Positions 1 to 19,215 of a stretch of 64,000 nt of DNA are shown piece by piece. This stretch comes from Salinisphaera sp. GTDB lineage: Bacteria > Pseudomonadota > Gammaproteobacteria > Nevskiales > Salinisphaeraceae. The translations under genes and the position numbers were made by a program. The notes below the pieces were generated by a model. It did not search any database, was not told where the DNA came from, and saw nothing but the letters and a program-made list of their open reading frames with translations. Location of the stretch: contig NZ_PBYA01000027.1 in assembly GCF_002729955.1 (NCBI RefSeq), positions 1 through 64,000 of the forward strand. Reading direction: 5' to 3'. Within the stretch, counting starts at the first letter, position 1, and every line of letters starts with the position of its first letter.

Positions 1-3000
1 GCCGATCGGCAGTTCTGGCGCGAGTATCTGCAGGGCGTACCCAATGCGCCGATGCTGACCAGCATCTATGGTCAGGCGCCGCCCAATGGCGCCGTTGCAC
101 CGCGGTCGAAACGGGCGGTGGCTTATCTGAGTCGCGAGACGACGGCACGCCTGGACGCACTCCTGGGCGATCGCGGGATCGGTTGGTCGGCGCTGATCGA
201 GGCGCTTTGGGCCATTCTGCTCTGGCGCCATACCGGCACAACCGATCTGACCTTCGGCGTGACGCGCTCCGGTCGCCAGGGCGGTCTGCCGGATGCCCAG
301 CGCGTGATCGCTCTGCTCATCAATACCACCCCCGCGCGCGCCAGCGTGGACCCCGACATGTCGCTGCGCGATTTCCTGCGCGAACGCCGGCAGGATCAGC
401 GTCGAACGCATTCGCACCAGCATCTGGGCCTGCTCGGCATTCAGCGCGCCTCCGGCACCGGCCGGGGGTCGATGGACTCGATCGTGATCTACGATCACAA
501 GACCATCGACGCGGCCGTCGCGCCGCATAAGCGTGGTTACGACTGGCAGTTCGACCTGCGCGGTCATACCGGCTATCCGCTTGCGCTGTTCGCCTATGGT
601 GGCGACCGTCTCATGCTCGATCTGAGCTACGACCCGGCCCATTTCGATGCGTACACGGCCAACCGACTGGTGGAGCGTCTCGTTCGGCTAGCGGAGTCCG
701 CAGGCGAGCAGGGCGGCGACGCCCCGCTGACCTCGCTGGACTGGCTTGCGCCTGTCGATCGCGAACGTCTTGTCACGCAATGGCAGCCCCGGCCGACCCC
801 GTTGCCGGCCGAACGCAGCATCGACGAAGCCGTGGCAGGGCGGGCTCGCACTGAACCGAATCGTATCGCGCTTTGCTGCGAGGACCGCGAGCTGAGCTAT
901 GCCTCGCTCGACGCTGCAATCGATGCGCTGGTAGCGCGGCTGGCGCGCCGTGGCGTCAAGCCACGCGACCACGTTGCCATCTTCTTGCCGCGCTCCGAGT
1001 ACCTGGTGATTGCGGCCCTGGCCGTACAACGCCTGGGGGCGGCCTATGTGCCCTGCGATCCGACCCACCCCAGCTCGCGGCTGGCACGGGTATTCGACGT
1101 TGCCCGGCCGGTATGCGTGATCACGGAAAGCTCGGTCATCGCGGCGCTGCCGGACAACGCGCCGGCGCTTATCGATATCGAGGCCGAGGCAGAGAGCCCG
1201 GCGGGCGACCCGGCACCGGCCCGGGCGCGGGTCGCGGCGGATGACACCGCCTATGTGATCTTTACCTCCGGCTCGAGCGGTCAGCCGAAGGGCGTGGTAC
1301 TGACCCATGCCAACGTGATGAACTTCCTGCAGTCGATGATCGAGCGCCCGGGCATTGGCCGCGACGATTGCCTGCTGGCAGTGACCACGCTCTCCTTCGA
1401 TATCGCGGTGCTGGAACTGTTCGGCCCGTTGCTGGTGGGCGCGCGCGTAGTGATCGCCCGCGATCCGGACATCTTCGACGGGCTGCGTCTGGCACGGCTG
1501 ATCGAGGCCCACCACGTGAACCGCCTGCAGGCCACGCCTTCGACGTGGCGGTTGCTGCGCCTGGCTGAATGGCGGGCGCCGGACGGCTTCACCGCCATGG
1601 TGGGTGGCGAGGCCATGGATGCCGTGCTGGCACGCGATCTGCTGGCCAGCGCGCGGGGCGAATTCGCGCTGTGGAATATGTACGGGCCGACGGAAACCAC
1701 CGTCTGGTCGACCTGCGAGCGTGTTCTGGACAGCGAGGATATCGGTATCGGCACGCCCATCGCCAATACCCGCTGTCATGTGGTCGATAGTGGCGGCGCG
1801 CTCGTCGCCCCCGGTGTGGTAGGCGAACTCTATATCGGCGGTACCGGCGTCGCGGCCGGCTATCTCGACGATCCCGAGCGCACCGCGGCGGCGTTCATCG
1901 ACTGGTCTCCGGGTGACGGGGTTGCGCCGGAGCGTAGCTACCGTACCGGCGATCTCGCGCGCTGGGACGTCGACGCCGAGGGCAAGGGGCGGTTGAAATG
2001 CCTGGGCCGCAGCGACGACCAGATCAAGATTCGCGGCCACCGGATCGAGCCCGGCGAAATCGAAACCGCGCTTACCGCCCATGCCAGCGTCGCCCAGGCC
2101 GTGGTGCGCCTGGTCGGCGATCAGGCCCCGCGGCTGGTCGCCTATCTACGCTTGAAAACGGACTTCGATGAAGATGCCCTGCGTGCGCACGTGAGCGCGC
2201 GCCTGCCGTCGGTGATGTGCCCAAACGTGTATATGCCGATGGAGTCGTTTCCATTGACCGCGAACGGCAAGGTGGACCGGCGCAGCCTGCCGATGCCGGA
2301 TCTCGCGGTGGATTCGGCCAGTGCCCGCAGCTATATCGCGCCGCGTAACGATATCGAAAAGACGCTCGCCGAAATCTGGACCGAGGTCACCGGCGTGCCG
2401 CGCCCCGGCATTGACGACAGTTTCTTCGATATCGGCGGCGATTCGCTTTCGCTGGTGGTCGCTCGTGGTCGCATCGCCCAGACCTACGGCGAGGCACCGT
2501 CGATCGCGGAGCTGTTCCAGTACGCCACCATTCGCAAGCTGGCCGAACGCCTCACCGACGCGACCACCCGCGTGGCCGCGGTCGCAGCGCAGACGCCTGT
2601 CGACAATGCGCCCGTGACAACAGGGGATCGGCGAATCGCGATCGTGGGTATGGCCGGGCGTTTCCCCGGCGCGGGCGATACCGACACCTTCTGGGCGAAC
2701 CTGGTGGCCGGGGTCGAATCCATCACCCATTTCGACGCCGATGCGCTGCGTCCCCACGAGCCCGATATCGACGCGCTGTTCTCCCAGCCCGGCTTCGTTG
2801 CCGCCCGCGGCGTACTCGACGATATCGAATATTTCGACGCCGCGTTTTTCGGCATCACCCCGCGCGAAGCCGCGTTGATCGACCCGCAGCAACGGCTGTG
2901 GCTGGAGACCGCCTGGGCGGCGCTCGAACAGGCCGGCGTAGACCCGAGCCGCGACGGCGCCAATGTCGGTGTATTTGCCGGCGCCGGCTATCTGGAGCCC

Positions 3001-6000
3001 TATCTGCTCCACAACATCCTGCATGACCGGGCCGCGATCGAGGATCAGGTACGCATTCGCGGGGTGGAAAGCTTTACCGCGATGGTGTCCAACGACAAGG
3101 ACTACCTGCCGACCCGTACCGCCTACAAATTCGGGCTGACCGGCCCCGCGCTCAACATACAGACCGCCTGTTCCACCGGGCTGGTCGCGGTTCATCAGGC
3201 CTGTATGAGTCTGTTGGCCGGCGAATCACGTCTGGCCATCGCGGGCGGCGTGTCCATCGGCCTGCCGCAGGCGCAGGGCTATTTCGCCCAGGAAGGCGGT
3301 ATGGCGTCGCTGGACGGGCATGTACGCACCTTCGACGAGGGTGCCTGTGGCACGGTCTTCTCCAGCGGCCTGGGCGCGGTGGTGCTCAAGCGCTACGAAG
3401 ATGCCGTGGCCGATGGCAGCGAGATTCTGGCCGTGATCCGCGGCAGCGCGATCAACAACGACGGCGCAGCCAAGATGAGTTTCACTGCGCCCAGCCCGGC
3501 CGGCCAGGCGGCGGTGGTTCATGCGGCCCAGCGCGCCGCCGGGGTCAGCCCCGACGAGGTCGGCTATATCGAGGCCCACGGCACGGGTACGCCGCTGGGC
3601 GACCCCATCGAAGTAGAAGGGCTGGCCATGGCCTGGCGCAGCGGCGGCGCCCAGGGCGCGCCGGTATGGCTGGGCTCGGTCAAGCCCAACGTCGGCCACC
3701 TGGATTCCGCGGCCGGCCTTGCCGGGCTGGTAAAAACGGTACATGCAGTCCGCGAGGGCCGTCTGCCCCCGACCCTTCACTACAAACGGCCCAATCCGCG
3801 TATCGATTTTGCATCGACCGCGTTCAAGGTGGTCGAACAGCTCACGCCGTGGCCCTCGGAGCCCGAGCGTCCGCGTATTGCCGGGGTGTCGTCCTTCGGC
3901 GTGGGCGGCACCAACGCCCACGTCATCGTGGCCGAAGCCCCGCCGCGGGCAGTCGGCCACGCACCGGTACGTGAACCGCAGCTGTTGGTGCTCTCCGCGC
4001 GTACGCCCACGGCGCTGGCCGCCCGCTGCACCGCGCTGGCGGAATGGCTTGAGCAGCATCCCGACGCCGTGCTCGCCGATGTGGCCTGGACACTGGCCGT
4101 CGGGCGCGCGGCAATGAGTCATCGTATTTCGATCGTGGCCACGACCGTTGCCGAGGCGGCACAGGCGCTGGCCGGTGCCGCGCGACGCAGTGCGAACCAG
4201 CCCGCCACCGAGGCCGACGCGCCGCCCGTGGCGTTCGTCTTTCCGGGGCAGGGCGCGCAGTACCCGGGCATGGGCCGCGCGCTGTACGAAACGCCCGGCG
4301 TATTCCGCGACAGCGTGGACCGGCTTGCCGGCGGTCTGGAAGAGCCGCTCGGGCTCGATATCCGAACCCTGATCACGCCCGACGCCACGACGCTCGAAAC
4401 CGCAGCACAACGGCTGAACGATACGGCCACGACCCAGCCGGCGATCTTTGCGATAGAGCTGGCATTGGCTTATCAATGGCGGGCCTGGGGGGTGGAGCCC
4501 GATATGCTGTTGGGCCATAGCGTGGGCGAATTCGCCGCGGCCGTGCTCGCCGGCGTATTCGGTGAAGCCGATGCCTGCCAGCTGATTGCCACCCGTGCGC
4601 GGCTGATGGCGGAGCAGGCACCGGGCGCCATGCTGGCGGTGCATGCAGCCGCTGATGGACTCGATGCATACCTTGACGACACGGTCGAGGTCAGCGCGAT
4701 CAATGCCCCGGAACTGTGCGTGGTTTCGGGCGCGCACGGCGCGATCGACATGCTCGCCCAGCGACTCGATGACGCCGGTATACGCAACACCCGGCTGGCC
4801 ACATCGCATGCATTCCACAGCCGTGCCATGGCCCCGGCCATGGCGCCCCTGGAAGCGGCGGTCGCCGCGATCACTCGGTCCCCGGCACGCCGGCCGGTCG
4901 TATCGACGCTGACCGGCGCGCTGCTGGCGGACGAGGATATGTGCGCCCCCGATTACTGGTCGCGCCAGATGCGCCAGGCGGTGCGCTTCGCCCCCGCGAT
5001 CGAAACCGCGCAACGACAGCTCGAGCCGGTGTTTGTCGAATGCGGCCCGGGCGGCCAGCTCACGGCTGCGATCGGTCAGCAGAGCGGCACCGGTTCGCCG
5101 TTGTCGGCCGTGCCGAGCCAGGCCGGCCCACGCGACGACACCCCGGCCGACGTGGCCCTGCTCAAGGCGCTCGGCGCGCTCTGGCAGGCGGGGGTGACCC
5201 CGGACTGGGCCGGCGTGTTTGGTCATGAACAATCGCCGCGCCGACGCCTGCATCTGCCGACCTATCCCTTTGAACGCAAGCGCTACTGGATCGATCCGCC
5301 GCAGCGTGGATCGGAGCAGGCCGCGCCGCTGGCGGCTGCCGACAGCTTGCCCATCTCCTCCAACGAGACCGTCATGCCCGTACCCGATCGCGTACCCGAA
5401 CTGCGTGAGCGCCTGCGCACGCTGTTCCATGACCTTTCCGGCATCGATATCAACCAGGAACTCGCCGAGCGCACCTTTGCCGGGCTCGGCATGGATTCGA
5501 TGTTCCTCACCCAGGCCGCGTCCGAGATTTCCCGGATCTTCGGGGTTACGATTCGCTTTCGGGATCTGCTCGAACGTTTGGAAACGCTGGATGCGCTGGC
5601 TGCCCATCTGGACGCGCAGATGCCACCGCCGGTGGAGCCTGCGCCTGCTCCAGCCGTACCCACCCAGCCCGCCGCGGCACAGCCTGCGTCAACGCAGCCA
5701 GCGAGCGTATCCAGCGCATCGGCGCCCGCCGCGCCGTCGCAGCCGGCGGCCTGGCCGCCTGCCTCGCAGTCGCAGGCCGCGGGCACGTCCGCGGGCAGCG
5801 ATACGCACCGTATCGTCGAACAGCAGCTGGCGCTGATGCAGCAGCAGCTGGCCCTGCTGGGCGCCGCTCCGTCAGCGCCGCCTGTCGCCCAGCCGACCCA
5901 CGATGGCAGGGCCGCCGCGCCAAGCCATTCGAGCGATGACACCGGTACGGGCATAGCGCTTCACGGCCGCCGGCAGGCCGATCAGTCGAACGCGTACAGC

Positions 6001-9000
6001 GGCCGGTTCGGGCCCTATAAACCCGTGGCGACCGGCCGCGACGCGTCGCTGACCGCCGCCCAGCGGTCATTCATCGCGACACTGACCACGCGCCTGAGCG
6101 AACGCACGCCCTCGTCGCGCGCGCTGGCAGAAAGCGGGCCGAGATACATGGCCGACCCGCGCCATGTGGTCGGGTTTCATCGCGACTGGAAGGGGCTGAC
6201 GTACCAGATTGCCATGCAGGCCAGCGAGGGTGCCCGGCTCACCGATATCGACGGCAACGACTATATCGACGTCACCATGAGTCTGGGCGTGGCGTTTCTC
6301 GGCCACGGGCATCCCGCGGTTCGACAGGCCGTCCACGCCCAGCTCGATCGCGGTTTCGAACTCGGCCCCCAGATGCCCACGGCCCCGCGGATTGCCGAGC
6401 GGCTGTGTCGCTTGACCGGACACGAGCGCGCCACGTTCACCACCACCGGCTCGGAGGCGGTCATGGCCGCGCTGCGCTGTGCTCGTACCGTCACCGGGCG
6501 GCATACCGTGGTGTATTTCACCGGCGATTACCACGGCACCTTCGACGAAGTCCTGGGCCGTGCCCATGTAACCGGTGATCAGCTGCGTACGCGCCCGGGC
6601 GTGCCCGGTGCGGCCCGGCATGGCGTGGACGACGTCATCGTGCTCGACTACGGCACGCAGGAATCGCTGTCGATTCTGCGCGAACATGCCGACCGGATTG
6701 CGGCGGTACTGGTGGAGCCGGTTCAGAGCCGCTATCCGGACCGCCAGCCCGAAGCCTTCGTGAAAGAGGTGCGACGTATTACGGCCCAGTCAGGCACGGC
6801 GTTGATTCTCGACGAGATGATTACCGGCTTTCGCTGTGCCCCGGGCGGTATCAACCGGCGCTGGGAGATCGGCGCGGACATGTGCACCTACGGCAAGATC
6901 CTCGGCGGCGGCATGCCCATCGGCGCGCTGGCCGGCAGCGCGCGCTGGCTGGACGCAATCGACGGCGGGCGCTGGCGCTTTGACGACGATTCGATCCCGG
7001 AAACCCCGATGACCTTCTTTGCGGGTACCCATGTCCGCCATCCCCTGGCCATGGCGGCCGCCGACGTGGTACTCGACTGGATCGAAAGCGATGCCGGCGC
7101 CTCTCAGCGCGCGCTGGATGCCGCCACCGCCGGGTTCGCCCAGCGCATCAATACGGCGATGGAGGCACGCGGCGTACCGCTTCGTATTCGTCACTTCTCG
7201 TCGTGGTTCCGCTTCGATTCGCCCCCGGACCAGCCGCTGGCCGTGCTGTTGGCGCCCTGGCTGGTCGCACACGGTGTGTATGTGCGCGACGCCGCACAGA
7301 ACTGTTTCTTCTCGATCGCTCATACCGACAAGGACATCGCCACCGTCGAACGAGCGATTCTCGACGGTGTGGACGCCATGGTGCAGGCCGGTGCCTTGCC
7401 GGGCGGCTCGGGTACGGCGGTGAACGCGCGGCCTGGCCACGACGCCGCCGAGCCGGCGGCTCTCGCGGTGGGCGAATCGATGCCCCTGATCGAGGCCCAG
7501 CGTGAAATCTGGCTGGCCCAGCAGGTGGATCCGGACGTGGCCGCGGCCTATAACCAGGTCTGTCGCCTGCGGCTGCGGGGCTCGCTCGACCATGGCGCCT
7601 TCGCTGCGGCCGTCGAGGCCGCCGCCGCGCGGCACGAGGCCCTGTCCCTGCGTTTTTCGGCCGACGGCGAACGCCAGTATCGGGCCGACGGTGCGCGGCT
7701 GGTGGAGTTGCACTGGATCGATCAACGCGATAGTGCGCAGCCCCAGCACGAAGCCGATACCGCGATCGGCGCCATGAGTGAACGCATACTGGATCTGTCC
7801 GATCCGGACACAGCGCTTGCCGAGGTGGCGGTTCATCGCGTGGCCGACGATCGCTACGACGTCGGCGTGATGCTGCATCACCTGGTCTGCGACGGCTGGT
7901 CGTCGATGCTGTTTTTCCGCGACCTGAGCGCTCTCTACGCTGCCAAGGTGGAACACCGAGCGCCGGCGCTGCCCGCCGCGGTGCCGTTTTCGCACCATGT
8001 ACAGACACTCGTCGCCCGCGATGCCGGACCCGATCTGGCCTGGTGGCGCGAACTCTATGCAACTGCGCCGCCGCCGCTGAGCCTGCCAACCCTGAGCGCT
8101 CGCCCCGTGCCACGCCGGGCCGAAGGTTCGACCCTGCGACATCGCCTGTCGGACGCGGTGACCGAACGCGTTACCGCCGTTGCCACCGAGCGTTCGATCA
8201 CCCGCTATGCCGTGACCTTCGCCGCCTTCGCAGCGCTGGTCATGCGCCTGACCGGCCAGCGCGATATCGTCGTGGCCATGCCGGTGGCGGGGCAGGTGCT
8301 GGAAGGCAAGACGGAGCTTTTCGGTCACTGTGTGCAGACCCTGCCGCTGCGACTCACGGCGGCCGACAATGCGTCGTTCGCCGATCTGCTCGCCACGGTA
8401 CGCAGCATGATCAGCAGCGCGAGCGCGCATGCCGGGGCGACCTTCGGTCAGATTCTGCGCGAAGTGCCCGGTCCGCGTGATCCTTCACGCCTGCCGCTGG
8501 CCGAAATCGTGTTCAACTGTGCCCCGGAAGATGGGCATCCCGTCATGCCGGAGCTGACCAGCAAGCTCGACGAGCCGGTCAAGACCACGACCCAGTTCGA
8601 CCTGCATTTCGATCTGGAAATCGGTGACGACGAATGGTGGATCGACTGCGATTACGCGACCGCACTGTTCGATGCCGACATGATCGGCGCCTGGCTGGCC
8701 GACTACGAGGCCGTGCTCGCCGCCGCGCTTGACGATATCGATGTGTCACTCGATGCGCTGCCCGTGACGGCGGCAGAGCGCGACGACCCCGGCGCACGCT
8801 TCAACCCGCCGGCGCTGGCGCTCGATCCGAACGCGGATCTGGTCACGGCGCTGGGCCGGGCAGCCGCGGCCGCGCCGACGAGCATCGCCATCGCCCATGC
8901 CAGCGGCGACTGGGACTATGCGCGCCTGGCGCAGGCCTCGGATCGTATCGCGGCCGCATTGGCAGCGCAGGGTGTCGGCGCCGGCGATCGCGTCGGCCTG

Positions 9001-10698
9001 TGCGCTGCGCGCACGCCGGCCGTAATCGCGGCAATGCTGGGCGTACTCAAGGCCGGGGCGGCCTATGTGCCGATGGACCCGAACTACCCCGCGGAGCGCC
9101 TGCGTTTCACCGCCGAGGACAGCGCGGTCGTGCTGACCCTGGTCGACGAGGCGGATCGCGTACTGGGCGATACGCCGACGCTGAGCCTGGAGACGGCGAT
9201 GGCCGCGACCGGGCCGGTACCGGAGCCGGGCGTCGACGGGGAACGCGAGGCCTATGTGATCTATACCTCGGGTTCGACCGGCCGGCCCAAAGGCGTGTCG
9301 GTACGTCATCGTAACGTCATGGCATTCCTGGCCTGGGCGAAACAGGCGCTGGCGGACGCGGAGATCGAGCGCATGCTGGCCTCCGCTTCGATCTGTTTCG
9401 ATTTCTCGGTATTCGAGCTGTTCGTGCCGCTCTCGCGCGGCAAGACGGTGGTGCTGGTAGACGATCTGCTTGCGCTGGTGAACCCGCTGGCCACGCCCCC
9501 CACGCTGGTCAGCGGTGTGCCCTCGGCCTTTGCCGCATTGCTGCGCCACGTTGAACTGCCCGCGAGCGTAAAAACAGTATTCGTCGGCGGCGAACCACTG
9601 CGTCGGGATCTGGTCGCGAAACTCGAGGCCCAGCCCGGGGTGAGCCGGGTCGTGGAATGCTATGGCCCGACTGAAACCACCGTATTCGCGACGGTGGGCG
9701 ACACGAGCGCCGATGGCCCGCCGACTATCGGCCCGCCGATCGCGGGCTGGCGCGCCTGTATCGTCGATGCCCAGGACCGGCCGGTCGCGGTCGGCGAAAC
9801 CGGCGAACTGCTGGTTGGCGGCGCGGGTGTGAGCGCGGGCTATGTCGGCCGTGAAGAACTGACCGCCGAGCGCTTCGTGCCCGACCCCGACGGTGGCCCC
9901 GGCGCGCGGCGTTATCGCACCGGCGACCTATGCCGCTGGCGCGACGATGGCCGCATCGAATTCATCGGTCGCGCGGATACCCAGGTCAAGCTGCGCGGCT
10001 TTCGTATCGAGCTGGGCGAAATCGAAACCGCGCTTACGTCGCATCCGGCGGTTGAAGAGGCGGTGGTCGGCGTACGCTCGGCCGGCGAGGGCGATGATCA
10101 GCTCGTCGCCTGGTGGAAGCCGGCGGTCGGTCATAAAGAGATCGAACCGACCGCGCTACGCCGTTATCTGCGCGAACGTCTGCCGTTGCATATGGTCGCC
10201 CAGCAGTTCGTGGTCCAAAACGAATGGCCACGCCTGGCCAACGGCAAGATCGATCGGAATGCGCTTGTCGACCCGTTCGAAAAAACGCGAGCCGAGGCCG
10301 CGGCCCCGGCCGTGGATGCCGATGCGATGGGCGCGATCACCGCGCTCTGGGCAGAGGCGCTTGGCCACGATATAGCGCCCGGGGCACAGGACACGTTCAT
10401 CGACATGGGCGGCCATTCCCTGTTGGCGGTACGCGCGGTGGCCGCAGCCCGCGAACGTCATGGTGTGGAGGTGCCGGTACGGGCAATGATGCTTGATAGC
10501 CTGGCCCAGCTCGCCATGCGGCTGGCCAACAAGAATCCGGCCCAACCCGCTGAGGGCGGCGCTGATCAAACACAGGCGTCGGCGGATTCGAGCGCAACAC
10601 CGGCGGAGCCCGAGCCGCAAAACGATGACACGAGAAACGGCGAGGGCGGGCGTCGCGACGGTCTGATGGCACGTCTGGGCCTGTCGCGGTCTTCCTGA
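1..10698 (+). CDS. Hybrid NRPS-PKS megasynthase with internal aminotransferase (5' end outside window)
   Basis: The reading frame is open from base 1, where it already reads as condensation-domain sequence (DRQFWREYLQG), so the gene starts upstream and 3,565 residues are visible. Approximate nucleotide positions of the domains are: end of C1 1-750; A1 810-2300 (FTSGSSGQPKG at 1261); PCP1 2330-2560 (GGDSL); KS 2630-3920 (active Cys codon 3169, EAHGTGT, NVGHLD); AT 4230-5270 (GHSVGE, and HAFH, the malonyl-CoA signature); ACP 5390-5620 (GMDSM); Pro/Ala/Gln-rich linker to about 6060; class-III PLP aminotransferase 6100-7400 (Lys codon 6895, YGKILGGG); C2 7480-8720 (HHLVCDG); A2 8830-10260; PCP2 10310-10530 (GGHSL). 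There is no KR, DH, ER, MT or TE domain. The KS-AT-ACP-aminotransferase-C order matches the iturin/mycosubtilin logic, in which a beta-keto thioester becomes a beta-amino acyl unit. By-eye A1 pocket residues (D I L Q M G M V W K) resemble the glycine code; A2 (D F F S F G C V F K) is not one I recognise. The product is unknown. Confidence 0.93.
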   Translation, partial: ADRQFWREYLQGVPNAPMLTSIYGQAPPNGAVAPRSKRAVAYLSRETTARLDALLGDRGIGWSALIEALWAILLWRHTGTTDLTFGVTRSGRQGGLPDAQRVIALLINTTPARASVDPDMSLRDFLRERRQDQRRTHSHQHLGLLGIQRASGTGRGSMDSIVIYDHKTIDAAVAPHKRGYDWQFDLRGHTGYPLALFAYGGDRLMLDLSYDPAHFDAYTANRLVERLVRLAESAGEQGGDAPLTSLDWLAPVDRERLVTQWQPRPTPLPAERSIDEAVAGRARTEPNRIALCCEDRELSYASLDAAIDALVARLARRGVKPRDHVAIFLPRSEYLVIAALAVQRLGAAYVPCDPTHPSSRLARVFDVARPVCVITESSVIAALPDNAPALIDIEAEAESPAGDPAPARARVAADDTAYVIFTSGSSGQPKGVVLTHANVMNFLQSMIERPGIGRDDCLLAVTTLSFDIAVLELFGPLLVGARVVIARDPDIFDGLRLARLIEAHHVNRLQATPSTWRLLRLAEWRAPDGFTAMVGGEAMDAVLARDLLASARGEFALWNMYGPTETTVWSTCERVLDSEDIGIGTPIANTRCHVVDSGGALVAPGVVGELYIGGTGVAAGYLDDPERTAAAFIDWSPGDGVAPERSYRTGDLARWDVDAEGKGRLKCLGRSDDQIKIRGHRIEPGEIETALTAHASVAQAVVRLVGDQAPRLVAYLRLKTDFDEDALRAHVSARLPSVMCPNVYMPMESFPLTANGKVDRRSLPMPDLAVDSASARSYIAPRNDIEKTLAEIWTEVTGVPRPGIDDSFFDIGGDSLSLVVARGRIAQTYGEAPSIAELFQYATIRKLAERLTDATTRVAAVAAQTPVDNAPVTTGDRRIAIVGMAGRFPGAGDTDTFWANLVAGVESITHFDADALRPHEPDIDALFSQPGFVAARGVLDDIEYFDAAFFGITPREAALIDPQQRLWLETAWAALEQAGVDPSRDGANVGVFAGAGYLEPYLLHNILHDRAAIEDQVRIRGVESFTAMVSNDKDYLPTRTAYKFGLTGPALNIQTACSTGLVAVHQACMSLLAGESRLAIAGGVSIGLPQAQGYFAQEGGMASLDGHVRTFDEGACGTVFSSGLGAVVLKRYEDAVADGSEILAVIRGSAINNDGAAKMSFTAPSPAGQAAVVHAAQRAAGVSPDEVGYIEAHGTGTPLGDPIEVEGLAMAWRSGGAQGAPVWLGSVKPNVGHLDSAAGLAGLVKTVHAVREGRLPPTLHYKRPNPRIDFASTAFKVVEQLTPWPSEPERPRIAGVSSFGVGGTNAHVIVAEAPPRAVGHAPVREPQLLVLSARTPTALAARCTALAEWLEQHPDAVLADVAWTLAVGRAAMSHRISIVATTVAEAAQALAGAARRSANQPATEADAPPVAFVFPGQGAQYPGMGRALYETPGVFRDSVDRLAGGLEEPLGLDIRTLITPDATTLETAAQRLNDTATTQPAIFAIELALAYQWRAWGVEPDMLLGHSVGEFAAAVLAGVFGEADACQLIATRARLMAEQAPGAMLAVHAAADGLDAYLDDTVEVSAINAPELCVVSGAHGAIDMLAQRLDDAGIRNTRLATSHAFHSRAMAPAMAPLEAAVAAITRSPARRPVVSTLTGALLADEDMCAPDYWSRQMRQAVRFAPAIETAQRQLEPVFVECGPGGQLTAAIGQQSGTGSPLSAVPSQAGPRDDTPADVALLKALGALWQAGVTPDWAGVFGHEQSPRRRLHLPTYPFERKRYWIDPPQRGSEQAAPLAAADSLPISSNETVMPVPDRVPELRERLRTLFHDLSGIDINQELAERTFAGLGMDSMFLTQAASEISRIFGVTIRFRDLLERLETLDALAAHLDAQMPPPVEPAPAPAVPTQPAAAQPASTQPASVSSASAPAAPSQPAAWPPASQSQAAGTSAGSDTHRIVEQQLALMQQQLALLGAAPSAPPVAQPTHDGRAAAPSHSSDDTGTGIALHGRRQADQSNAYSGRFGPYKPVATGRDASLTAAQRSFIATLTTRLSERTPSSRALAESGPRYMADPRHVVGFHRDWKGLTYQIAMQASEGARLTDIDGNDYIDVTMSLGVAFLGHGHPAVRQAVHAQLDRGFELGPQMPTAPRIAERLCRLTGHERATFTTTGSEAVMAALRCARTVTGRHTVVYFTGDYHGTFDEVLGRAHVTGDQLRTRPGVPGAARHGVDDVIVLDYGTQESLSILREHADRIAAVLVEPVQSRYPDRQPEAFVKEVRRITAQSGTALILDEMITGFRCAPGGINRRWEIGADMCTYGKILGGGMPIGALAGSARWLDAIDGGRWRFDDDSIPETPMTFFAGTHVRHPLAMAAADVVLDWIESDAGASQRALDAATAGFAQRINTAMEARGVPLRIRHFSSWFRFDSPPDQPLAVLLAPWLVAHGVYVRDAAQNCFFSIAHTDKDIATVERAILDGVDAMVQAGALPGGSGTAVNARPGHDAAEPAALAVGESMPLIEAQREIWLAQQVDPDVAAAYNQVCRLRLRGSLDHGAFAAAVEAAAARHEALSLRFSADGERQYRADGARLVELHWIDQRDSAQPQHEADTAIGAMSERILDLSDPDTALAEVAVHRVADDRYDVGVMLHHLVCDGWSSMLFFRDLSALYAAKVEHRAPALPAAVPFSHHVQTLVARDAGPDLAWWRELYATAPPPLSLPTLSARPVPRRAEGSTLRHRLSDAVTERVTAVATERSITRYAVTFAAFAALVMRLTGQRDIVVAMPVAGQVLEGKTELFGHCVQTLPLRLTAADNASFADLLATVRSMISSASAHAGATFGQILREVPGPRDPSRLPLAEIVFNCAPEDGHPVMPELTSKLDEPVKTTTQFDLHFDLEIGDDEWWIDCDYATALFDADMIGAWLADYEAVLAAALDDIDVSLDALPVTAAERDDPGARFNPPALALDPNADLVTALGRAAAAAPTSIAIAHASGDWDYARLAQASDRIAAALAAQGVGAGDRVGLCAARTPAVIAAMLGVLKAGAAYVPMDPNYPAERLRFTAEDSAVVLTLVDEADRVLGDTPTLSLETAMAATGPVPEPGVDGEREAYVIYTSGSTGRPKGVSVRHRNVMAFLAWAKQALADAEIERMLASASICFDFSVFELFVPLSRGKTVVLVDDLLALVNPLATPPTLVSGVPSAFAALLRHVELPASVKTVFVGGEPLRRDLVAKLEAQPGVSRVVECYGPTETTVFATVGDTSADGPPTIGPPIAGWRACIVDAQDRPVAVGETGELLVGGAGVSAGYVGREELTAERFVPDPDGGPGARRYRTGDLCRWRDDGRIEFIGRADTQVKLRGFRIELGEIETALTSHPAVEEAVVGVRSAGEGDDQLVAWWKPAVGHKEIEPTALRRYLRERLPLHMVAQQFVVQNEWPRLANGKIDRNALVDPFEKTRAEAAAPAVDADAMGAITALWAEALGHDIAPGAQDTFIDMGGHSLLAVRAVAAARERHGVEVPVRAMMLDSLAQLAMRLANKNPAQPAEGGADQTQASADSSATPAEPEPQNDDTRNGEGGRRDGLMARLGLSRSS

Positions 10699-10705
10699 GG
10701 TGGCG

Positions 10706-11491
10706 ATGGAGCCGTTCTTTTTCGGTACCGGAGGCGCGCTCTATGGCGCCTATCATCAGCCGCCAGCAGATGCGCCCGGCCCGGAAACCGCGCTGCTGAT
10801 CTGCCAGGGCATCGGCTACGAGTACATGCGGGCTTATCGGGCCTGCTGGCAGCTCGCCGAAACAGCGGCCGCCCGCAATGCCCATGTGCTGCGCTTCGAC
10901 TATGGCTGTACCGGGGAAAGCCACGGTCGCCAGCACGAGGCCAGCTGGGCGCGCTGGATCGCCGATACCGGCGAAGCCATTGCATGGCTGCGGGATACGA
11001 CCGCGCTGTCCCATGTTCGAATTGTTGGCGTGCGGACCGGGGCATTGATCGCGGCGGCGGCGAGTGCTCAGACCCGCGAGCGCCGTCGCCTGCTGCTCTG
11101 GGATCCGGTGGTCGACGGCAAAACCTATCTGCAGCAGATCGGCGTGATGCACGAAAGCCAGACGCACAACATGAACCGATATCGGCCGCGTCGGCATCAT
11201 CACGCCGAGCGTGGCGGTGATGAGTATCTGGGCTTTCACTGGCCGTCGGCCGTCGTGGACGAACTGGCCGGCGCACGGCTCATGGATTATGCCCAGGCGC
11301 GAACGGATGACTGGGATCTGGCCTTGAGCCCCGGCGAAGTGCGGCAGCCGGTCATTGATACGGTCGCCGCCCGGGGCGGGCATATCGTCGAAATGCCGGA
11401 GGCGATGGACTGGATGGACATACGTGCGCAATACCGTCGGGTTGCGCTGCCGCAATCCGCCCAGCCAATGCTCGACCGGGTGCTTGCCTGA
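10706..11491 (+). CDS. Alpha/beta-hydrolase-fold protein, exosortase-system hydrolase type 2-like
   Basis: A 261-residue protein whose ATG lies 5 bases after GAGG, which overlaps the synthase stop. A GTG at 10700 is an alternative start but leaves no room for a ribosome site. The N-terminal strand and RFDYGCTGES motif fit the alpha/beta-hydrolase fold. At the nucleophile elbow it reads G-V-R-T-G, with Arg where Ser is expected. From memory, this matches the exosortase A system-associated hydrolase 2 family, which is found in exopolysaccharide loci. It is translationally linked to the megasynthase and followed after one base by a second hydrolase. It may assist product release or tailoring, or be non-catalytic. 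No signal peptide is seen, so it is probably cytoplasmic. The fold is clear; the function is not. Confidence 0.75.
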   Translation: MEPFFFGTGGALYGAYHQPPADAPGPETALLICQGIGYEYMRAYRACWQLAETAAARNAHVLRFDYGCTGESHGRQHEASWARWIADTGEAIAWLRDTTALSHVRIVGVRTGALIAAAASAQTRERRRLLLWDPVVDGKTYLQQIGVMHESQTHNMNRYRPRRHHHAERGGDEYLGFHWPSAVVDELAGARLMDYAQARTDDWDLALSPGEVRQPVIDTVAARGGHIVEMPEAMDWMDIRAQYRRVALPQSAQPMLDRVLA

Positions 11492-11492
11492 G

Positions 11493-12332
11493 ATGCCTGA
11501 GATACCGCTGCGTTTCGGTCATGAATCCCATCTGGTGGGCATGTTCTGCGAGCCGGATGCACCACAGGCGCGCGAGCGGCCTGCGGTATTGTTTCTCAAC
11601 TCGGGGCTCGAGCACCGGGTCGGTCCGCGAGGCCTGTCGGTTGCGGTGGCGCGGGCGCTGGGCGATGCCGGTTTTGCCAGCCTGCGCTTCGACTATGCCG
11701 GCATGGGAGAAAGCCGCAAGCCGAAGCGTCCGCTTGCCGCCGAGCGTGACGAAGAACTTCTGGCCGAATGCGCGGCCGCCATCGAGCTGCTGCAGACTCG
11801 CACCGGCGCTGCGGGCGTGGTGTTGTTCGGCCTGTGCAGCGGTGCCGACGATGCGCACCGGGTGGCCATGGCCAATGACGCAGTCCTGGGCATGGCCCAG
11901 ATCGACGGCCATGGCGCGATCACGGCCGGCTTCAAATGGCGCTATGTCGCACATCGTCTGGCCTCGCCCAGACGCTGGCAGAACTGGTTCGAACGCAAGT
12001 TCGGCGCCCCGGCCGACGCTGATCGAGCAGTGCTCGAAGGCGTCGATTTCTTTCAGATGCCGGAACGCGACACGCTGGCCCACGATCTGGCCCTGCTCGC
12101 GAAACGCGACGTGCGGCTGTTCTATGCCTATTCGGGCGCGACCCACAGCTACTACAACCATTCCGGGCAGCTACGCCGTGCGTTGGCACAGGCCGGCGTG
12201 GACCTGGGCGGGCATCTGGAAGAACATTTTCTGCCGTCGGCCGACCACACGTTTTCACGTAACGCCGAGCGAATGGTGTTGATCGAAACGCTGATCGCCT
12301 GGCTTCAGGCCGGCTGGCCCTCGGGCGAATGA
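11493..12332 (+). CDS. Alpha/beta hydrolase, exosortase-system hydrolase type 1-like
   Basis: A 279-residue protein. The ATG at 11493 is one base after the upstream stop, and the frame is open further 5' but without a plausible start. Motifs visible are an oxyanion-type LNSGLEHRVGPRG segment, RFDYAGMGES, a nucleophile elbow G-L-C-S-G in which Cys takes the place of the usual Ser, and a late SADHTF that could supply the catalytic His. The Cys elbow resembles exosortase A system-associated hydrolase 1 proteins as I remember them. Being the third gene of the synthase operon, it is the best candidate for releasing or transferring the assembled chain, because the synthase ends without a thioesterase. 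The last 28 bases overlap the 3' end of the opposing PPTase gene. Confidence 0.75.
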   Translation: MPEIPLRFGHESHLVGMFCEPDAPQARERPAVLFLNSGLEHRVGPRGLSVAVARALGDAGFASLRFDYAGMGESRKPKRPLAAERDEELLAECAAAIELLQTRTGAAGVVLFGLCSGADDAHRVAMANDAVLGMAQIDGHGAITAGFKWRYVAHRLASPRRWQNWFERKFGAPADADRAVLEGVDFFQMPERDTLAHDLALLAKRDVRLFYAYSGATHSYYNHSGQLRRALAQAGVDLGGHLEEHFLPSADHTFSRNAERMVLIETLIAWLQAGWPSGE

Positions 12333-12958
12333 GTACAGGCCACACAGACGATGCGTTCGCCCTGAACAAGGCTGCGCACCACGATATCGAGACGTGGCGG
12401 AAGGTCGGCCATTTGCAGGCGATAACCATTCGCCGCGGCGATCAACTCGAAATCGACAAAGTCGGTCGCTGCCCGACCGAGCCCGGCGAGACATTTGTAG
12501 GCCGCCTCCTTGGCCGAGAACAGGCGCACCGCATCGCGCTCGTCGGCCAGGCCCGCGCGTTCGCTGGCCGTGAACACGCTCGGCCAGGCAGGCGCAGCGA
12601 GGGCGCGCGGCCCTTCGATATCGAGACCGATCGCGGCGATCGCATGTCGATACGCCACGGCCACGGCCGCCACGCCATCGGCATGGGTAAGGCTGCCGGT
12701 CACGCCCCCCGGCCAGGCCGGGCCGGCATCGCGGCTGGCGCCCAGTGCCGCGACCGGGCGCCCGAGGGACGCCAGGGCCGCGCGGGCGAGCGTACGCGCG
12801 CTCGCGAATTCGGCACGCCGCGTTTCAACGGCGCGCTCGACCAGCGCTGCCTCGACAGGCGGCAGGGCGCCGGCCGGGGCGATCGGCCCGGCCCGTACGA
12901 CCGCGCCTGCCGGCAAAAGGCCGGCGATGAGTTCTTCCAGCGGGTAATCGCGTGTCAT
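12305..12958 (-). CDS. 4'-phosphopantetheinyl transferase, EntD/Sfp type
   Basis: A 217-residue enzyme that transfers the phosphopantetheine arm of coenzyme A to the Ser of carrier domains. Family motifs are present in order: RRAEFASAR, then GVTGSLTH, IGLDIE (metal-binding Asp/Glu) and FSAKEAAYK (catalytic Glu and Lys). The N-terminal half resembles the EntD-like subgroup used for siderophore and peptide synthetases. It is the natural partner for PCP1, ACP and PCP2 of the adjacent megasynthase. It lies on the opposite strand, with its 3' end overlapping the hydrolase gene and its start 44 bases from the divergent flippase gene. Identification is secure at family level. Confidence 0.9.
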   Translation of the reverse strand: MTRDYPLEELIAGLLPAGAVVRAGPIAPAGALPPVEAALVERAVETRRAEFASARTLARAALASLGRPVAALGASRDAGPAWPGGVTGSLTHADGVAAVAVAYRHAIAAIGLDIEGPRALAAPAWPSVFTASERAGLADERDAVRLFSAKEAAYKCLAGLGRAATDFVDFELIAAANGYRLQMADLPPRLDIVVRSLVQGERIVCVACTHSPEGQPA

Positions 12959-13002
12959 GCGCGTATTGTCGCGCGTTCGCGCCGCAAAACGCAGAGGGCG
13001 CC

Positions 13003-14451
13003 ATGCTGAAATGGCTGTCTTCGTCGCTGGCGGACGCGGTCGGGCGTATTCTGTTGAAGCTCGTCACCACGGTGGTATTCGCCTACTGGCTGTCGCCGGA
13101 GATATTCGGCCGAGCCTCGCTCACCATCGTCATCGTCAGCCTGCTGGCGATCGTGGTCACGGCGCCGTTCGAGGAATCGCTGGTGCAACGGCGCGTGATT
13201 TCGCGCTCGCAGTTCGCCGGCGCACTGGCGCTGGTGCTGGCCGGCTCGGTGGCGCTGATCGCGGCCAGCTTTGCGGCCGCCGCGGTCATCGCGCGTGTCT
13301 ATCCGGCCACCAGCGAGACGGTCACGCTGGCCTGGCTGGTGGCCGGTTTCAGCCCTATCCTGCTCGCCCATGCCGGGGTGGCGATCTTTACCGCCATGGC
13401 ACGCCGCCATCGGGCCTTTACCCGTATTGCCTGGTCCAATCTGGCCGGCGATGTGCTCGGCGTGGGTGTGGGTCTTGGCCTGGTGTTCTCGGGCGTCGGC
13501 GTGTGGTCGCTGCTGGCCGTACGGCTCGTTTCGCGTTTCGTCACGCTGGCATGGCTGGTCGTCGACAACCCGGTACGGCTGCGCCCGGCCTGGTCGCTCG
13601 GCGGGTTGGGGGAGCTCTCCGGTGTCGCAGGCTGGTTTTTTGCCGCGCGTTGCGTGGACAAGGCCGGCGACGCGGTCTTTCAGGGGGTCGTGGCCCGCCT
13701 GTTCGGCCTCGAAGGCGCGGGCTATCTGAATATGGCGTTGCGCATTATCGAACCGGTTCGCGGGCCGACGGCCTCGGTGAGCCACAACATCGCGATGTCG
13801 TTTTTCGTGCGCGCCCAGGATGCCCCGCAGCGCCTGCGCGCCGCGGTGGCGAGCACGGTGTCGCATACCGCGATGGTTCTGCTGCCGGTGTTCTTTGGCC
13901 TGGCGGCCTGTGCGCCCACGCTCATCGCCTTGCTCGGCGGCGAACGCTGGGCCGCGGCCGGGCCCATCGCGGCCGGGCTTGCGCTGGCCGGCGGCGTCGG
14001 CGCGACAACGCATTTTCTGATGACCGCGCTGGCCGCACGGGGCGAGGCCCGCCTGTGCTGTCTGGCGTTGGCCGCTGAGCTGGTTTGCGTCGCGATCGCG
14101 CTCTGGCTGTTGGCGCCGCTCGGGCTGATCGCCATCGGCGTGGCCCGCATGGTCTCGACTTCGGCCATGGCCGGCTTCTATCTCACCGTGGCCCGGCCGG
14201 TGTTCGGGATCGACCGGCAGGCGTTCTTGCGTTCGGTGCTGCCCAGCCTGCTCAGCGCGACCCTCATGGCGGTGCTGGTGGTTGGGGTTGCGCGGCTGCT
14301 CGGGCCGGACACGTCGTCCGCGCTGGTGCTGATCGCCCAGGTCAGCGTCGGTGTGCTCATCTATGCCGGCCTTGCGCTGCTTTTTCAGCGCGCGCTGCTC
14401 TACTCGGTGCTCAACGCCCTGCGTGGGCGTAAACCGGGGCTGCCCGCCTGA
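13003..14451 (+). CDS. Polysaccharide flippase, Wzx/MOP superfamily
   Basis: A 482-residue integral membrane protein with about 12-14 hydrophobic segments across its whole length. The ATG at 13003 is preceded by GAGGG at a good distance; an upstream in-frame ATG at 12952 would overlap the PPTase start and adds a non-conserved leader. Wzx-type flippases move undecaprenyl-diphosphate-linked oligosaccharides from the inner to the outer face of the cytoplasmic membrane. The start MLKWLSSSLADAVGRILLK and the phrase GVGVWSLLAVRL are typical of the group. It points toward, and ends 6 bases from, the exopolysaccharide operon, for which it would supply the missing flippase. A role in exporting the megasynthase product is possible but unsupported. 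Confidence 0.85.
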   Translation: MLKWLSSSLADAVGRILLKLVTTVVFAYWLSPEIFGRASLTIVIVSLLAIVVTAPFEESLVQRRVISRSQFAGALALVLAGSVALIAASFAAAAVIARVYPATSETVTLAWLVAGFSPILLAHAGVAIFTAMARRHRAFTRIAWSNLAGDVLGVGVGLGLVFSGVGVWSLLAVRLVSRFVTLAWLVVDNPVRLRPAWSLGGLGELSGVAGWFFAARCVDKAGDAVFQGVVARLFGLEGAGYLNMALRIIEPVRGPTASVSHNIAMSFFVRAQDAPQRLRAAVASTVSHTAMVLLPVFFGLAACAPTLIALLGGERWAAAGPIAAGLALAGGVGATTHFLMTALAARGEARLCCLALAAELVCVAIALWLLAPLGLIAIGVARMVSTSAMAGFYLTVARPVFGIDRQAFLRSVLPSLLSATLMAVLVVGVARLLGPDTSSALVLIAQVSVGVLIYAGLALLFQRALLYSVLNALRGRKPGLPA

Positions 14452-14457
14452 ACGCGG

Positions 14458-15633
14458 CTACTGCGGCTGCGGATCCAGGGTGACGCGAACCGCAATGCCG
14501 CCGACCCATTCGCGATAGTCGAAGACGGGTTCGCTGGAGTCGCGGATGACGCGCTCGCCGCTGGCGATCAGGGCCAGCTGTGGGCGTGGCCGCCAGGTCA
14601 GATCCAGCCCGTAGTTGCGAACCTCATCCTGGCGGGAGTCGTCGGCAACCGAGGTCTGCTGATAGTCGCGCCGGTTCCAGGCGCCGCGAGCGGTGAGTTC
14701 GATCGCCGGACTGTATTCCCAATCGAGGGCCACCTCGGCGCCGCGGCTGCGCAGGGCGTTGGCGTCGATATTGTCGGCAGAATAAATATCCTGCGAGAGG
14801 GTGAAGCGAAGCTGGGTCTTTGCCGAGACGTCGCGAATATAGCTCAGCCGGGCCGTGGGTGCGGAATAATCCTCCGACTGGCCGCCGCGGTTGTCGCGGT
14901 GGGCATAGCCGGCGCGTAGCTGAACCCGGGAGATCCCGGATATACGCCAGTCCAGTCGTCCGAACGGTTCGTGCTGCACGAAGCGCCGGGCGAGCGGGTC
15001 GTTCGGGTCGCGTTCGGGGTAGCGCCCGTCGATACGCTCCACGCCGACGGTCAGGCTTGTCTGTGGTGCGCCGATATAGCGCAGTGCCAGGCGGGATTCG
15101 AGTTCGTCGCGGTCGTAGCGGCGCTCGCTGTCGAGGCTGTGCCGGCGCAGCCGGTAATCGACGCCGCCGACCACCTGCCAGTGCGGGGTCACGGCCAGCG
15201 TGGTTTCGATGCCCGGGTTGCTCAGGCGAATGAAGTCCTGCTCGCGCGTGCCGCGGTTCTCGAAGTCGGTCAGTTCGCGGGAGCGGTTGTAGTAGAGCCG
15301 GCCGCGCAGGGCATGGCCCACTTCGTAGTTCCAGACGAAGTTGCCGTTGTAGGCGGTGTGATCGAGGCGCTCGTTCTTGACGTAGTTCAGGCGGCTCAGA
15401 TCGATATGCAGCGAGAGTTGCTGGCGCGACATGCCCCAGCGCGCATCGGCGCCGACGGTGGCCCGGCGCTGCGTATCGGCCTCGCGGGTCTCTTCGCGTG
15501 AAGCAAACAGGTTGCTGTCGCGGCTCACACCGGCTTCGATATAGGGCGACAGACGCAGCTCGCCGGCGTGCGCACCGCAGGGCAGTGCCACCAGCGAGGC
15601 CGCCAGAATGTAGCGTACTTCAGTAGGCCGCAC
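14458..15633 (-). CDS. Outer-membrane beta-barrel exopolysaccharide protein, EpsL-like
   Basis: A 391-residue protein with a short N-terminal hydrophobic stretch ending GAHAGE, consistent with a signal peptide. The rest is made of alternating amphipathic strands rich in Tyr, Arg and Asp (LSPYIEAGVSRDSNLF near the mature N-terminus) ending in a barrel-like VRVTLDPQPQ. It resembles the EpsL barrel of methanolan-type and PEP-CTERM/exosortase-associated exopolysaccharide loci, thought to take part in secretion across the outer membrane. It is the last gene of the leftward operon and overlaps the sugar transferase gene by 14 bases. No exosortase or PEP-CTERM protein is present in the window. Confidence 0.7.
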   Translation of the reverse strand: MRPTEVRYILAASLVALPCGAHAGELRLSPYIEAGVSRDSNLFASREETREADTQRRATVGADARWGMSRQQLSLHIDLSRLNYVKNERLDHTAYNGNFVWNYEVGHALRGRLYYNRSRELTDFENRGTREQDFIRLSNPGIETTLAVTPHWQVVGGVDYRLRRHSLDSERRYDRDELESRLALRYIGAPQTSLTVGVERIDGRYPERDPNDPLARRFVQHEPFGRLDWRISGISRVQLRAGYAHRDNRGGQSEDYSAPTARLSYIRDVSAKTQLRFTLSQDIYSADNIDANALRSRGAEVALDWEYSPAIELTARGAWNRRDYQQTSVADDSRQDEVRNYGLDLTWRPRPQLALIASGERVIRDSSEPVFDYREWVGGIAVRVTLDPQPQ

Positions 15634-17011: not shown

Positions 17012-17952
17012 TGGTCTGCCTTGTCCGCGTGGCGGCGGCCGCGAAACGAGCGCAGCAGACGCGCCGGCAGCGCTGCGAGCTGGCGACGTTGCCAGCGGCG
17101 CAGATCGCGCCGGAATGCAGGGTCCGGATAGCGCGGCACGCCGCGTGCTGCGGCACCGAAATAACCGGCGATGATGAGCAGCCCGCCTACGCCGTAGGGC
17201 CAGTCACGCATGCGATAAATACCCGATGCCACCGCATAGGCGGGGTCGTAGCCCATGAAATGGATGCCGCGCCCCCAGCGCAGTCTGCCGTGCACGATGC
17301 TGACCTCGGATGAACCCATCAGCCGGTGATGGTGGATACGCGCTTCGGGATCGGGAATATTGCGGGTACGCCAGCCGTTCATGCGGGCACGATGGATATC
17401 AATGCCATCCCATTGCAGCGTCTGTTCGAAGCCGCCGATGGCCTCGAAGGCGGCACGCCGATAGAACTTGAAGGGGCCGCAGACCATATCGGGGCTCTTG
17501 CGCTCCTCGACATCGCCGCCGGGCTCGGGCCGGAACACGCGCCCGGATACCGCGGCCAGGCGCTCGTCGGCCGCGAATTCGGCGAGCATGCGTTCGATAT
17601 AGCGCGGCCCGTAGGTGATATCGGCATCGAGCTTGACGATATAGTCCCAGTCCGCAATCGGCGCGGCAGCCAGGCCGTAGTTGAACGCCTCGATCACGCC
17701 GGAGCCTACCTGGCGGCGCCCGCGGTCGGGTTTGTCGACGACATGAATGAAGTCGGTTTGCGCAGCCCGTGCACGGGCGATCGCCGAGGTATCGTCGCTG
17801 GAGCCGTCGTTGACGATCACCCAGGCCGCTGGGCGTACCGTCTGCGCGCTGAGGCTGTCGATGGCCGCGTTGATGAATCGCGCCTCGTCGCGCACCGGCG
17901 AGATGACCAGAATGCGCGGGTGACCCATCGCCTGTTGGGGCGTTTCGCTCAT
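17008..17952 (-). CDS. Glycosyltransferase family 2
   Basis: A 314-residue GT-A-fold transferase. The N-terminal ISPVRDEARFINAAIDSL and NDGSSDDT are the nucleotide-sugar-binding start of GT2 enzymes. KLDADI supplies the DxD-like metal site, and a hydrophobic segment near residue 240-260 followed by a basic tail suggests membrane association. It adds one sugar to the lipid-linked repeat unit on the cytoplasmic face. Both ends overlap neighbours by 4 bases (ATGA), a sign of translational coupling. Donor and acceptor are unknown. Confidence 0.88.
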   Translation of the reverse strand: MSETPQQAMGHPRILVISPVRDEARFINAAIDSLSAQTVRPAAWVIVNDGSSDDTSAIARARAAQTDFIHVVDKPDRGRRQVGSGVIEAFNYGLAAAPIADWDYIVKLDADITYGPRYIERMLAEFAADERLAAVSGRVFRPEPGGDVEERKSPDMVCGPFKFYRRAAFEAIGGFEQTLQWDGIDIHRARMNGWRTRNIPDPEARIHHHRLMGSSEVSIVHGRLRWGRGIHFMGYDPAYAVASGIYRMRDWPYGVGGLLIIAGYFGAAARGVPRYPDPAFRRDLRRWQRRQLAALPARLLRSFRGRRHADKADQ

Positions 17953-19214: not shown

Positions 19215-19215
19215 G

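What the first reader, a model, noticed from the sequence alone, without database searches (positions are those of the whole stretch)
1..10698. Hybrid NRPS-PKS with a built-in aminotransferase and no release domain
Seen directly: C-A-PCP-KS-AT-ACP-aminotransferase-C-A-PCP in one frame, then a stop. Established for iturin-family synthases: KS-AT-ACP-aminotransferase makes a beta-amino acyl unit. Here it sits mid-chain after an amino-acid module rather than after a fatty-acyl loader, so a beta,gamma-diamino or similar unit inside a peptide is predicted. I do not recognise a known product.
Basis: partly seen in the sequence, partly recalled or inferred. Interest (0 to 1): 0.8.

Follow-up and report, generated by a model that had tools for sequence, protein, structure and literature searches.

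The report
Single-protein peptide-polyketide synthase beside exopolysaccharide genes
A Salinisphaera-like bacterium carries one giant enzyme that should build a small molecule with two neighbouring amino groups; it has no built-in release step, but two detached hydrolase-like proteins travel with it and it sits beside sugar-coat genes, hinting that its product is used in or exported with the slime layer.

Summary
The domain order is real and the active-site motifs checked are intact. The window starts mid-gene: a 99-base overlap joins it to contig C31, which completes the first C domain. No other gene in the genome has NRPS condensation domains, so the line is one protein of about 3,755 aa, C-A-PCP-KS-AT-ACP-AMT-C-A-PCP. 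Predicted logic: Gly-like amino acid, malonyl extension, transamination to a 3,4-diaminobutanoyl-type unit, one more amino acid. A stand-alone acyl-AMP-ligase/carrier protein elsewhere in the genome could feed the first C domain.

The architecture is not new: a 2013 survey lists the S. shabanensis homologue; an A-PCP module precedes the KS in all 29 relatives where this is visible.

New here: (1) two alpha/beta-hydrolase-like genes follow, one with Cys at the nucleophile position, one with none; both occur in the same 5 of 17 family genomes as the synthase, and in Abyssibacter. Release in trans is likely. (2) The synthase stays beside a Wzx/Wzy-type exopolysaccharide operon in Salinisphaera, even at another genomic site. 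A flippase or sugar-transferase gene lies near the AMT in 12 of 32 relatives, and not in 20. A role in the polysaccharide is inference.

The parts
1..771 (+). C-terminal half of the first condensation domain (C1); N-terminal half is on contig C31 (L006:19281-19949, start codon chosen by me)
841..2271 (+). adenylation domain A1; code read by hand DILTMGMVW (Gly-like, recalled)
   Evidence: Gly also predicted for the S. shabanensis homologue in PMC3870968
2362..2553 (+). PCP1
2629..3783 (+). ketosynthase, C-H-H motifs present
4234..5079 (+). acyltransferase, malonyl-type motifs GHSVGE/HAFH (meaning recalled)
5443..5655 (+). ACP (approximate borders)
6208..7302 (+). class-III aminotransferase domain, PLP Lys in TYGK
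7477..8760 (+). second condensation domain (C2), HHLVCDG
8917..10068 (+). adenylation domain A2; code read by hand DFFAFGCVF, no assignment
10363..10590 (+). PCP2, last domain; no TE after it
10700..11491 (+). 'hydro2': alpha/beta-hydrolase-like, TIGR03101-like below cut-off; Thr here, V/A/I in relatives, at the nucleophile position
11493..12332 (+). 'hydro1': alpha/beta-hydrolase fold, TIGR03100-like below cut-off, Cys at the nucleophile position (GLCSGA), His in ADHTFS; start codon chosen by me
12305..12958 (-). 4'-phosphopantetheinyl transferase
13003..14451 (+). MOP-family (Polysacc_synt_3, Wzx-like) flippase
14458..15633 (-). EpsL-like outer-membrane protein of the EPS operon (below cut-off)
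15620..17011 (-). WcaJ-type undecaprenyl-phosphate glucose phosphotransferase (over NCBIfam cut-off)
17008..20328 (-). three glycosyltransferases (one GT2-type, two GT4-type)
20330..21757 (-). BNR_4 repeat protein
21754..23052 (-). Wzy_C polymerase/ligase-like
23049..26007 (-). EpsG-like kinase and EpsF-like chain-length determinant (both below cut-off), SLBB/Poly_export protein

Best explanation
A one-protein hybrid assembly line. C1 starts the chain on a Gly-like aminoacyl-PCP; its acyl donor is unknown and may come from acyl-CoA or from the stand-alone acyl-AMP-ligase/carrier protein on contig C8. The KS extends with malonyl. The AMT turns the beta-ketone into an amine, giving a beta,gamma-diamino (3,4-diaminobutanoyl-type) unit. 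C2 joins it to the acid chosen by A2. The thioester on PCP2 is released or transferred in trans by hydro1, a Cys-type alpha/beta hydrolase, helped by its nucleophile-less partner hydro2; the neighbouring PPTase primes the carriers. In Salinisphaera the product most likely serves the adjoining Wzx/Wzy-type exopolysaccharide, as a decoration of its lipid-linked unit or as a matrix partner. Shown: architecture, motifs, gene linkage, co-occurrence. Inferred: chemistry, release in trans, role in EPS.
For: Domains and motifs. AMT matches mycosubtilin synthase AMT at 355 bits over residues 8-427 of the 437 searched. Upstream are tRNA-Cys, tRNA-Gly, pgsA and uvrC. Hydro1 and hydro2 are in the same 5 of 17 family genomes as the synthase, and both follow the Abyssibacter synthase. 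Cys of GLCSGA aligns with the Ser of MHETase; the His alignment is a separate weak stretch. The flippase (E 1e-40) is in those 5 plus one of the other 12. In G016 the operon genes, flippase and PPTase lie beside the synthase at another site: no uvrC or pgsA match in either fetched flank and no tRNA in the 13.6 kb upstream. Of 32 relative genomes, a PF13440 flippase lies within 10 kb of the AMT in 8 (expected 0.26) and PF02397 in 6 (expected 0.53).
Against: Neither marker is near the AMT in 20 of 32 relative genomes, including Abyssibacter, L015, the main Anaerolineae locus and five Edaphobacter/Granulicella genomes; some contigs are short. The placement test assumes uniform positions, its lineage version does not allow for many members per lineage, and it has no matched NRPS control. 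Hydro1/hydro2 are far below the cut-offs of TIGR03100/03101 (74 and 83.5 bits against 168.45 and 202.75). L016 ends in a thioesterase, so trans release is not general. The donor for C1 is unknown; C1's best solved match is a C domain that I read as following an epimerase; Abyssibacter's first C domain is a poor match to C1 (60 bits, C-terminal half only).
Confidence: 0.5

Rival explanations
1. An ordinary secreted small molecule (lipodipeptide-like metabolite). The flippase is its own exporter and the EPS operon is only a neighbour in the same accessory region.
For: MOP-superfamily exporters serve other NRPS products (ClbM of colibactin, recalled). Abyssibacter keeps synthase, both hydrolases and a PPTase; in its genome the flippase query found nothing, and its PF13440 and PF02397 hits lie on other contigs. 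The synthase lies next to tRNA genes, a common insertion site (meaning recalled).
Against: In G016 the EPS genes, with the flippase in their direction, stay beside the synthase at another site. Sugar-transferase neighbours, which an exporter does not explain, recur in other phyla.
Confidence: 0.35
2. Release is spontaneous (e.g. cyclisation of the diamino unit onto the thioester) or by a housekeeping hydrolase; hydro1/hydro2 do something else, such as editing or polysaccharide deacylation.
For: A free beta- or gamma-amine can attack a thioester (general chemistry, recalled). Hydro2 lacks Ser, Cys or Asp at the nucleophile position in 6 of 6 sequences. Hydro1's fold neighbours are esterases and lipases among others.
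Against: Both genes follow the synthase directly (one base between hydro2's stop and the start chosen for hydro1) and have the same genome distribution as the synthase.
Confidence: 0.25
3. The line is fed in trans: a stand-alone acyl-AMP-ligase/carrier protein loads a fatty acyl chain that C1 takes up, so the product is a lipopeptide-like acyl-Gly-diamino chain.
For: Contig C8 encodes a 651-aa protein whose best NCBIfam model is a fatty acyl-AMP ligase (370 bits, cut-off 600) and whose residues 581-647 match a carrier model; solved relatives include McyG and fatty acyl-adenylate ligases. C1 is the first domain also in L015, L044, L035 and G016.
Against: The C8 gene is not clustered with the synthase and shows no other NRPS/PKS domain within the 8 kb looked at; its presence in the other synthase genomes was not tested. 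C1 scores far better against PvdL (198 bits) than against 7c1k (76) and CDA synthetase I (37), which I recall as starter types.
Confidence: 0.35

Closest known systems
Salinisphaera shabanensis E1L3A F7QBN5 (Milano et al. 2013, PMC3870968, passages read)
   Same: C-A-CP-KS-AT-CP-PLP1-C-HxxPF-A-CP; predicted Gly-Mal-Nrp; AMT region 80% identical and syntenic here
   Different: a survey row; the passages seen do not discuss its release, neighbours or product
Mycosubtilin/iturin synthase MycA (KS-AT-ACP-AMT then C-A-PCP)
   Same: AMT domain of the same family; same order from KS to PCP (order in MycA recalled)
   Different: here an amino-acid module stands before the KS; no acyl-AMP ligase in cis (a separate one is on contig C8)
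A-PCP | KS-AT-ACP-AMT-C-A-PCP | C-PCP-TE line of Bryocella elongata (L016)
   Same: homologous core, flippase directly upstream
   Different: no N-terminal C; extra C-PCP with thioesterase; no hydro1/hydro2 match
Exosortase A-associated hydrolases 1 and 2 (TIGR03100, TIGR03101)
   Same: best NCBIfam matches of hydro1 and hydro2, here paired
   Different: well below curated cut-offs; no exosortase found in this genome
eps operons with EpsF, EpsG, EpsL and a WcaJ-type transferase
   Same: WcaJ over cut-off and EpsF/G/L-like genes
   Different: EpsF/G/L below cut-off; an NRPS-PKS adjoins

Membership tests
hybrid NRPS-PKS assembly line | C, A, PCP, KS, AT, ACP domains in one protein with intact motifs | tested here: met
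iturin-type beta-amino synthase | KS-AT-ACP followed in cis by class-III AMT, then C-A-PCP | tested here: met
iturin-type beta-amino synthase | fatty acyl-AMP ligase/ACP loader in front of the KS in cis | tested here: not met
   an A-PCP amino-acid module stands there; a ligase/carrier protein lies apart on contig C8
iturin-type beta-amino synthase | transamination of a beta-ketoacyl-ACP | not testable with these tools
   needs biochemistry
exosortase A-associated hydrolases 1/2 (TIGR03100/TIGR03101) | score over curated cut-off (168.45 / 202.75 bits) | tested here: not met
   74 and 83.5 bits
exosortase A-associated hydrolases 1/2 (TIGR03100/TIGR03101) | exosortase in the genome | tested here: not met
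   PF09721 not found in G000; found in 6 of 17 family genomes, one of them (G016) with the synthase
Wzx/Wzy-dependent exopolysaccharide locus | initiating sugar transferase, GTs, flippase, polymerase, chain-length and export proteins together | tested here: met
   the flippase is convergent with the operon here and co-directional with it in G016
lipopeptide line with starter C | first C domain of the starter class | tested here: inconclusive
   position fits, but nearest solved C domain is another type by my reading; no typed C-domain tree was made

The most novel reading that the evidence does not exclude
A family of aminotransferase-bearing NRPS-PKS lines makes diamino acyl units that are transferred, in Salinisphaera by a Cys-type alpha/beta hydrolase with a nucleophile-less partner, onto lipid-linked saccharides, so that assembly-line chemistry decorates exopolysaccharides in several phyla.
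Probability: 0.25. Interest if true: 0.85.

Novelty: new variant of a known kind. Interest (0 to 1): 0.5.

Why it matters
If release in trans by the hydrolase pair is right, it gives a testable function to proteins resembling two exosortase-associated hydrolase families that NCBIfam leaves as hypothetical equivalogs. If the polysaccharide link is right, it joins assembly-line biosynthesis to surface sugars. The line is one compact protein with a PPTase gene beside it, so it can be tested whole.

Tried and rejected
Rejected: a missing upstream NRPS module (contig join, relatives' open frames, own-genome Condensation search). The fourth Condensation match, on contig C3, is a stand-alone protein closest to the acyltransferase PapA2 (143 bits), not an NRPS domain. 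Rejected: ORFs 11521-12282 and 12329-13009 as genes; hydro1 is read as 11493-12332 and the PPTase is on the other strand. Rejected: a hidden TE at the C terminus (no TE, no GxSxG in the last 150 aa). Rejected: exosortase partnership in this genome.

It made me withdraw 'only NRPS-like gene in the genome' and raise the trans-feeding rival from 0.2 to 0.35.

Led little: the hydro2 model is poor (mean pLDDT 60.9) and was not searched; the hydro1 model (74.8) gives a general hydrolase fold. The specificity-code script printed positions 299/301 shifted; I read them by hand from the printed motifs, with code positions recalled. The script's 'E' labels for some C domains are unreliable and unused. 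No matched NRPS control was run, the genome searches being spent; of the three other AMT copies, the one in G018 lies beside a flippase, WecG and GT2, and the two in G048 share no contig with a PF13440 or PF02397 hit. The G001 flippase, in a genome without the synthase, had no other window gene matched around it.

Rows dropped: L014 and L028 of 34 loci were not given to (32 of 34); L014 was left out (33 of 34); one search used 29 rows, fragmentary loci left out, its EPS labels set by hand. Distances and the lineage grouping were made by eye. Of 8 ORFs directly upstream of an A-PCP gene scanned with Pfam, 6 are flippases, one an ABC transporter (L031), one WecG (L034).

Full report
Check. Frame +1 from base 1 to 10698 is open. 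Pfam gives two Condensation, two AMP-binding, three PP-binding, KS, AT and class-III aminotransferase domains and no thioesterase. Script-made domain models give the order C(part)-A-PCP-KS-AT-ACP-AMT-C-A-PCP. AT carries GHSVGE and HAFH, the malonyl-type pattern (recalled).

Completing the protein. The window is G000:C27:1-64000, and its first 99 bases are the last 99 of contig C31, the only such overlap among the matches. C31 adds the N-terminal half of C1 in frame, with HHLVMDG. From the ATG I chose at L006:19281 the whole is about 3,755 aa; an ATG at 19176 would give 3,790. Before it lie tRNA-Cys and tRNA-Gly, pgsA and uvrC. A Condensation search of the genome gave four matches: C2, the two halves of C1, and a stand-alone PapA2-like protein on C3. 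Two relatives have single frames of 3,788 and 3,778 aa. Contig C8 holds a separate acyl-AMP-ligase/carrier protein, a possible donor for C1.

Who it is. The AMT region is 80% identical to S. shabanensis (L012), 78% to a strain filed as Endozoicomonas sp. G2_2 (L013) and 91% to Salinisphaera UBA6602 (L014). Of 17 genomes in the family, 5 have this AMT at 64% identity or more, this genome included.

How common. One search gave 34 loci. In 33 scanned, A-PCP stands directly before the KS in 29; the other 4 (L028, L032, L038, L040) are cut by a contig end.

Product logic. A1 reads DILTMGMVW by hand from the motifs, which I recall as glycine-like; the 2013 survey predicts Gly-Mal-Nrp for F7QBN5 (PMC3870968, passages read). 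A2 reads DFFAFGCVF and I make no call. Hence the inferred unit is 3,4-diaminobutanoyl, N-acylated by whatever C1 adds, followed by one amino acid. C1's best solved match is PvdL (198 bits), at a C domain behind a stretch I read as epimerase, against 76 for 7c1k and 37 for CDA synthetase I. C2 is closest to Txo2 (136 bits).

Release. Hydro2 (10700-11491) and hydro1 (11493-12332) follow at once. Their best NCBIfam models are TIGR03101 (83.5 bits, cut-off 202.75) and TIGR03100 (74, cut-off 168.45). In 6 of 6 homologues hydro2 has V, T, A or I where the nucleophile should be, and hydro1 has GLCSGA and ADHTFS. A profile of hydro1 aligns that Cys with the Ser of GLSMG in MHETase; its DHTFS matches in a second, weak stretch. 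Both occur in the same 5 of 17 family genomes as the synthase and directly after the Abyssibacter synthase. That they release or transfer the product is inference.

Exopolysaccharide link. Downstream are a PPTase, a Polysacc_synt_3 flippase and an operon with WcaJ over cut-off, three glycosyltransferases, Wzy_C, EpsF-, EpsG- and EpsL-like proteins and an SLBB export protein. S. shabanensis keeps the same order. In G016, where AMT is 64% and flippase 52% identical, the operon genes follow in the same order with two unexamined gaps of about 2 kb, then flippase and PPTase, then the synthase on the other strand. The flanks fetched there show no uvrC or pgsA match and the upstream one no tRNA, so the unit sits elsewhere. 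The synthase there is split in two, as in Abyssibacter.

Beyond the genus. Genomes of 32 of the 34 loci were searched. A PF13440 flippase lies within 10 kb of the main AMT in 8 of 32 (expected 0.26, tail 1e-10). PF02397 lies within 10 kb in 6 of 32 (expected 0.53, 1e-5) and within 20 kb in 7 of 32 (expected 1.05, 6e-5). Collapsed to 18 lineages of my grouping the counts are 3, 5 and 6; that version ignores that a lineage with 13 genomes has more chances. The union is 12 of 32 genomes; 20 of 32 show neither. In six loci (five Acidobacteriaceae, one Rhodanobacteraceae) a flippase is directly upstream of the A-PCP gene. A second Anaerolineae copy has flippase, WecG and GT2 beside it, and Xenococcus has WecG. 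The test assumes uniform placement and lacks a matched NRPS control, so it shows recurrence, not function.

Tree. On KS+AMT of 29 loci, midpoint-rooted, Salinisphaera, Abyssibacter, L015 and L044 form one group (support 1.0). All have a C domain first, but five loci of the other part also show a partial C match before A. In this group EPS neighbours were seen only in Salinisphaera; EPS-labelled loci are spread through the other part.

Print. Ten paper searches ran and one failed (ran: 48, 49, 50, 53, 56, 60, 61, 83, 86, 87; failed: 84). They returned the 2013 survey, and no listing whose title or abstract start describes an NRPS-PKS of this kind tied to exopolysaccharide. Three papers were opened, as passages only: PMC3870968, PMC12819058, PMC3102044. 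Subscription journals are largely missing, so absence is weak.

Verdict. Real, and already in print as an architecture; product unknown. The value lies in the completed protein, the candidate trans-release pair, the possible trans acyl donor and the recurrent exopolysaccharide neighbourhood.

Noticed in passing
L004 (G000:C8), 106-2058 minus strand: A 651-aa fatty acyl-AMP-ligase-like protein with a C-terminal carrier domain stands alone; it may load an acyl chain for the window's synthase or serve another pathway.
   Followed up: partly
L013: Record titled Endozoicomonas sp. G2_2 is a Salinisphaera relative by synteny; its contig has the same length as that of G014, placed in the same genus as the window.
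   Followed up: partly
L031: A contig filed under Candidatus Gracilibacteria groups with Pseudanabaena on the KS+AMT tree, suggesting a mis-binned cyanobacterial contig.
   Followed up: partly
L016:17173-18171, L029:17270-18223: A gene of about 320-330 aa without any Pfam or NCBIfam match at E 0.001 lies just after the NRPS genes in two Acidobacteriaceae loci.
   Followed up: partly
window 20330-21757: A BNR_4 repeat protein, weakly like alpha-L-rhamnosidase, is kept inside the exopolysaccharide operon in G008 and G016.
   Followed up: no
L013 C1 domain: The C1 motif reads HHVLMDSRG instead of HHxxxDG, so C1 may be altered in that strain.
   Followed up: no
L080: Anaerolineae genome G018 has a second, divergent AMT synthase beside flippase, WecG and GT2 genes.
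   Followed up: partly
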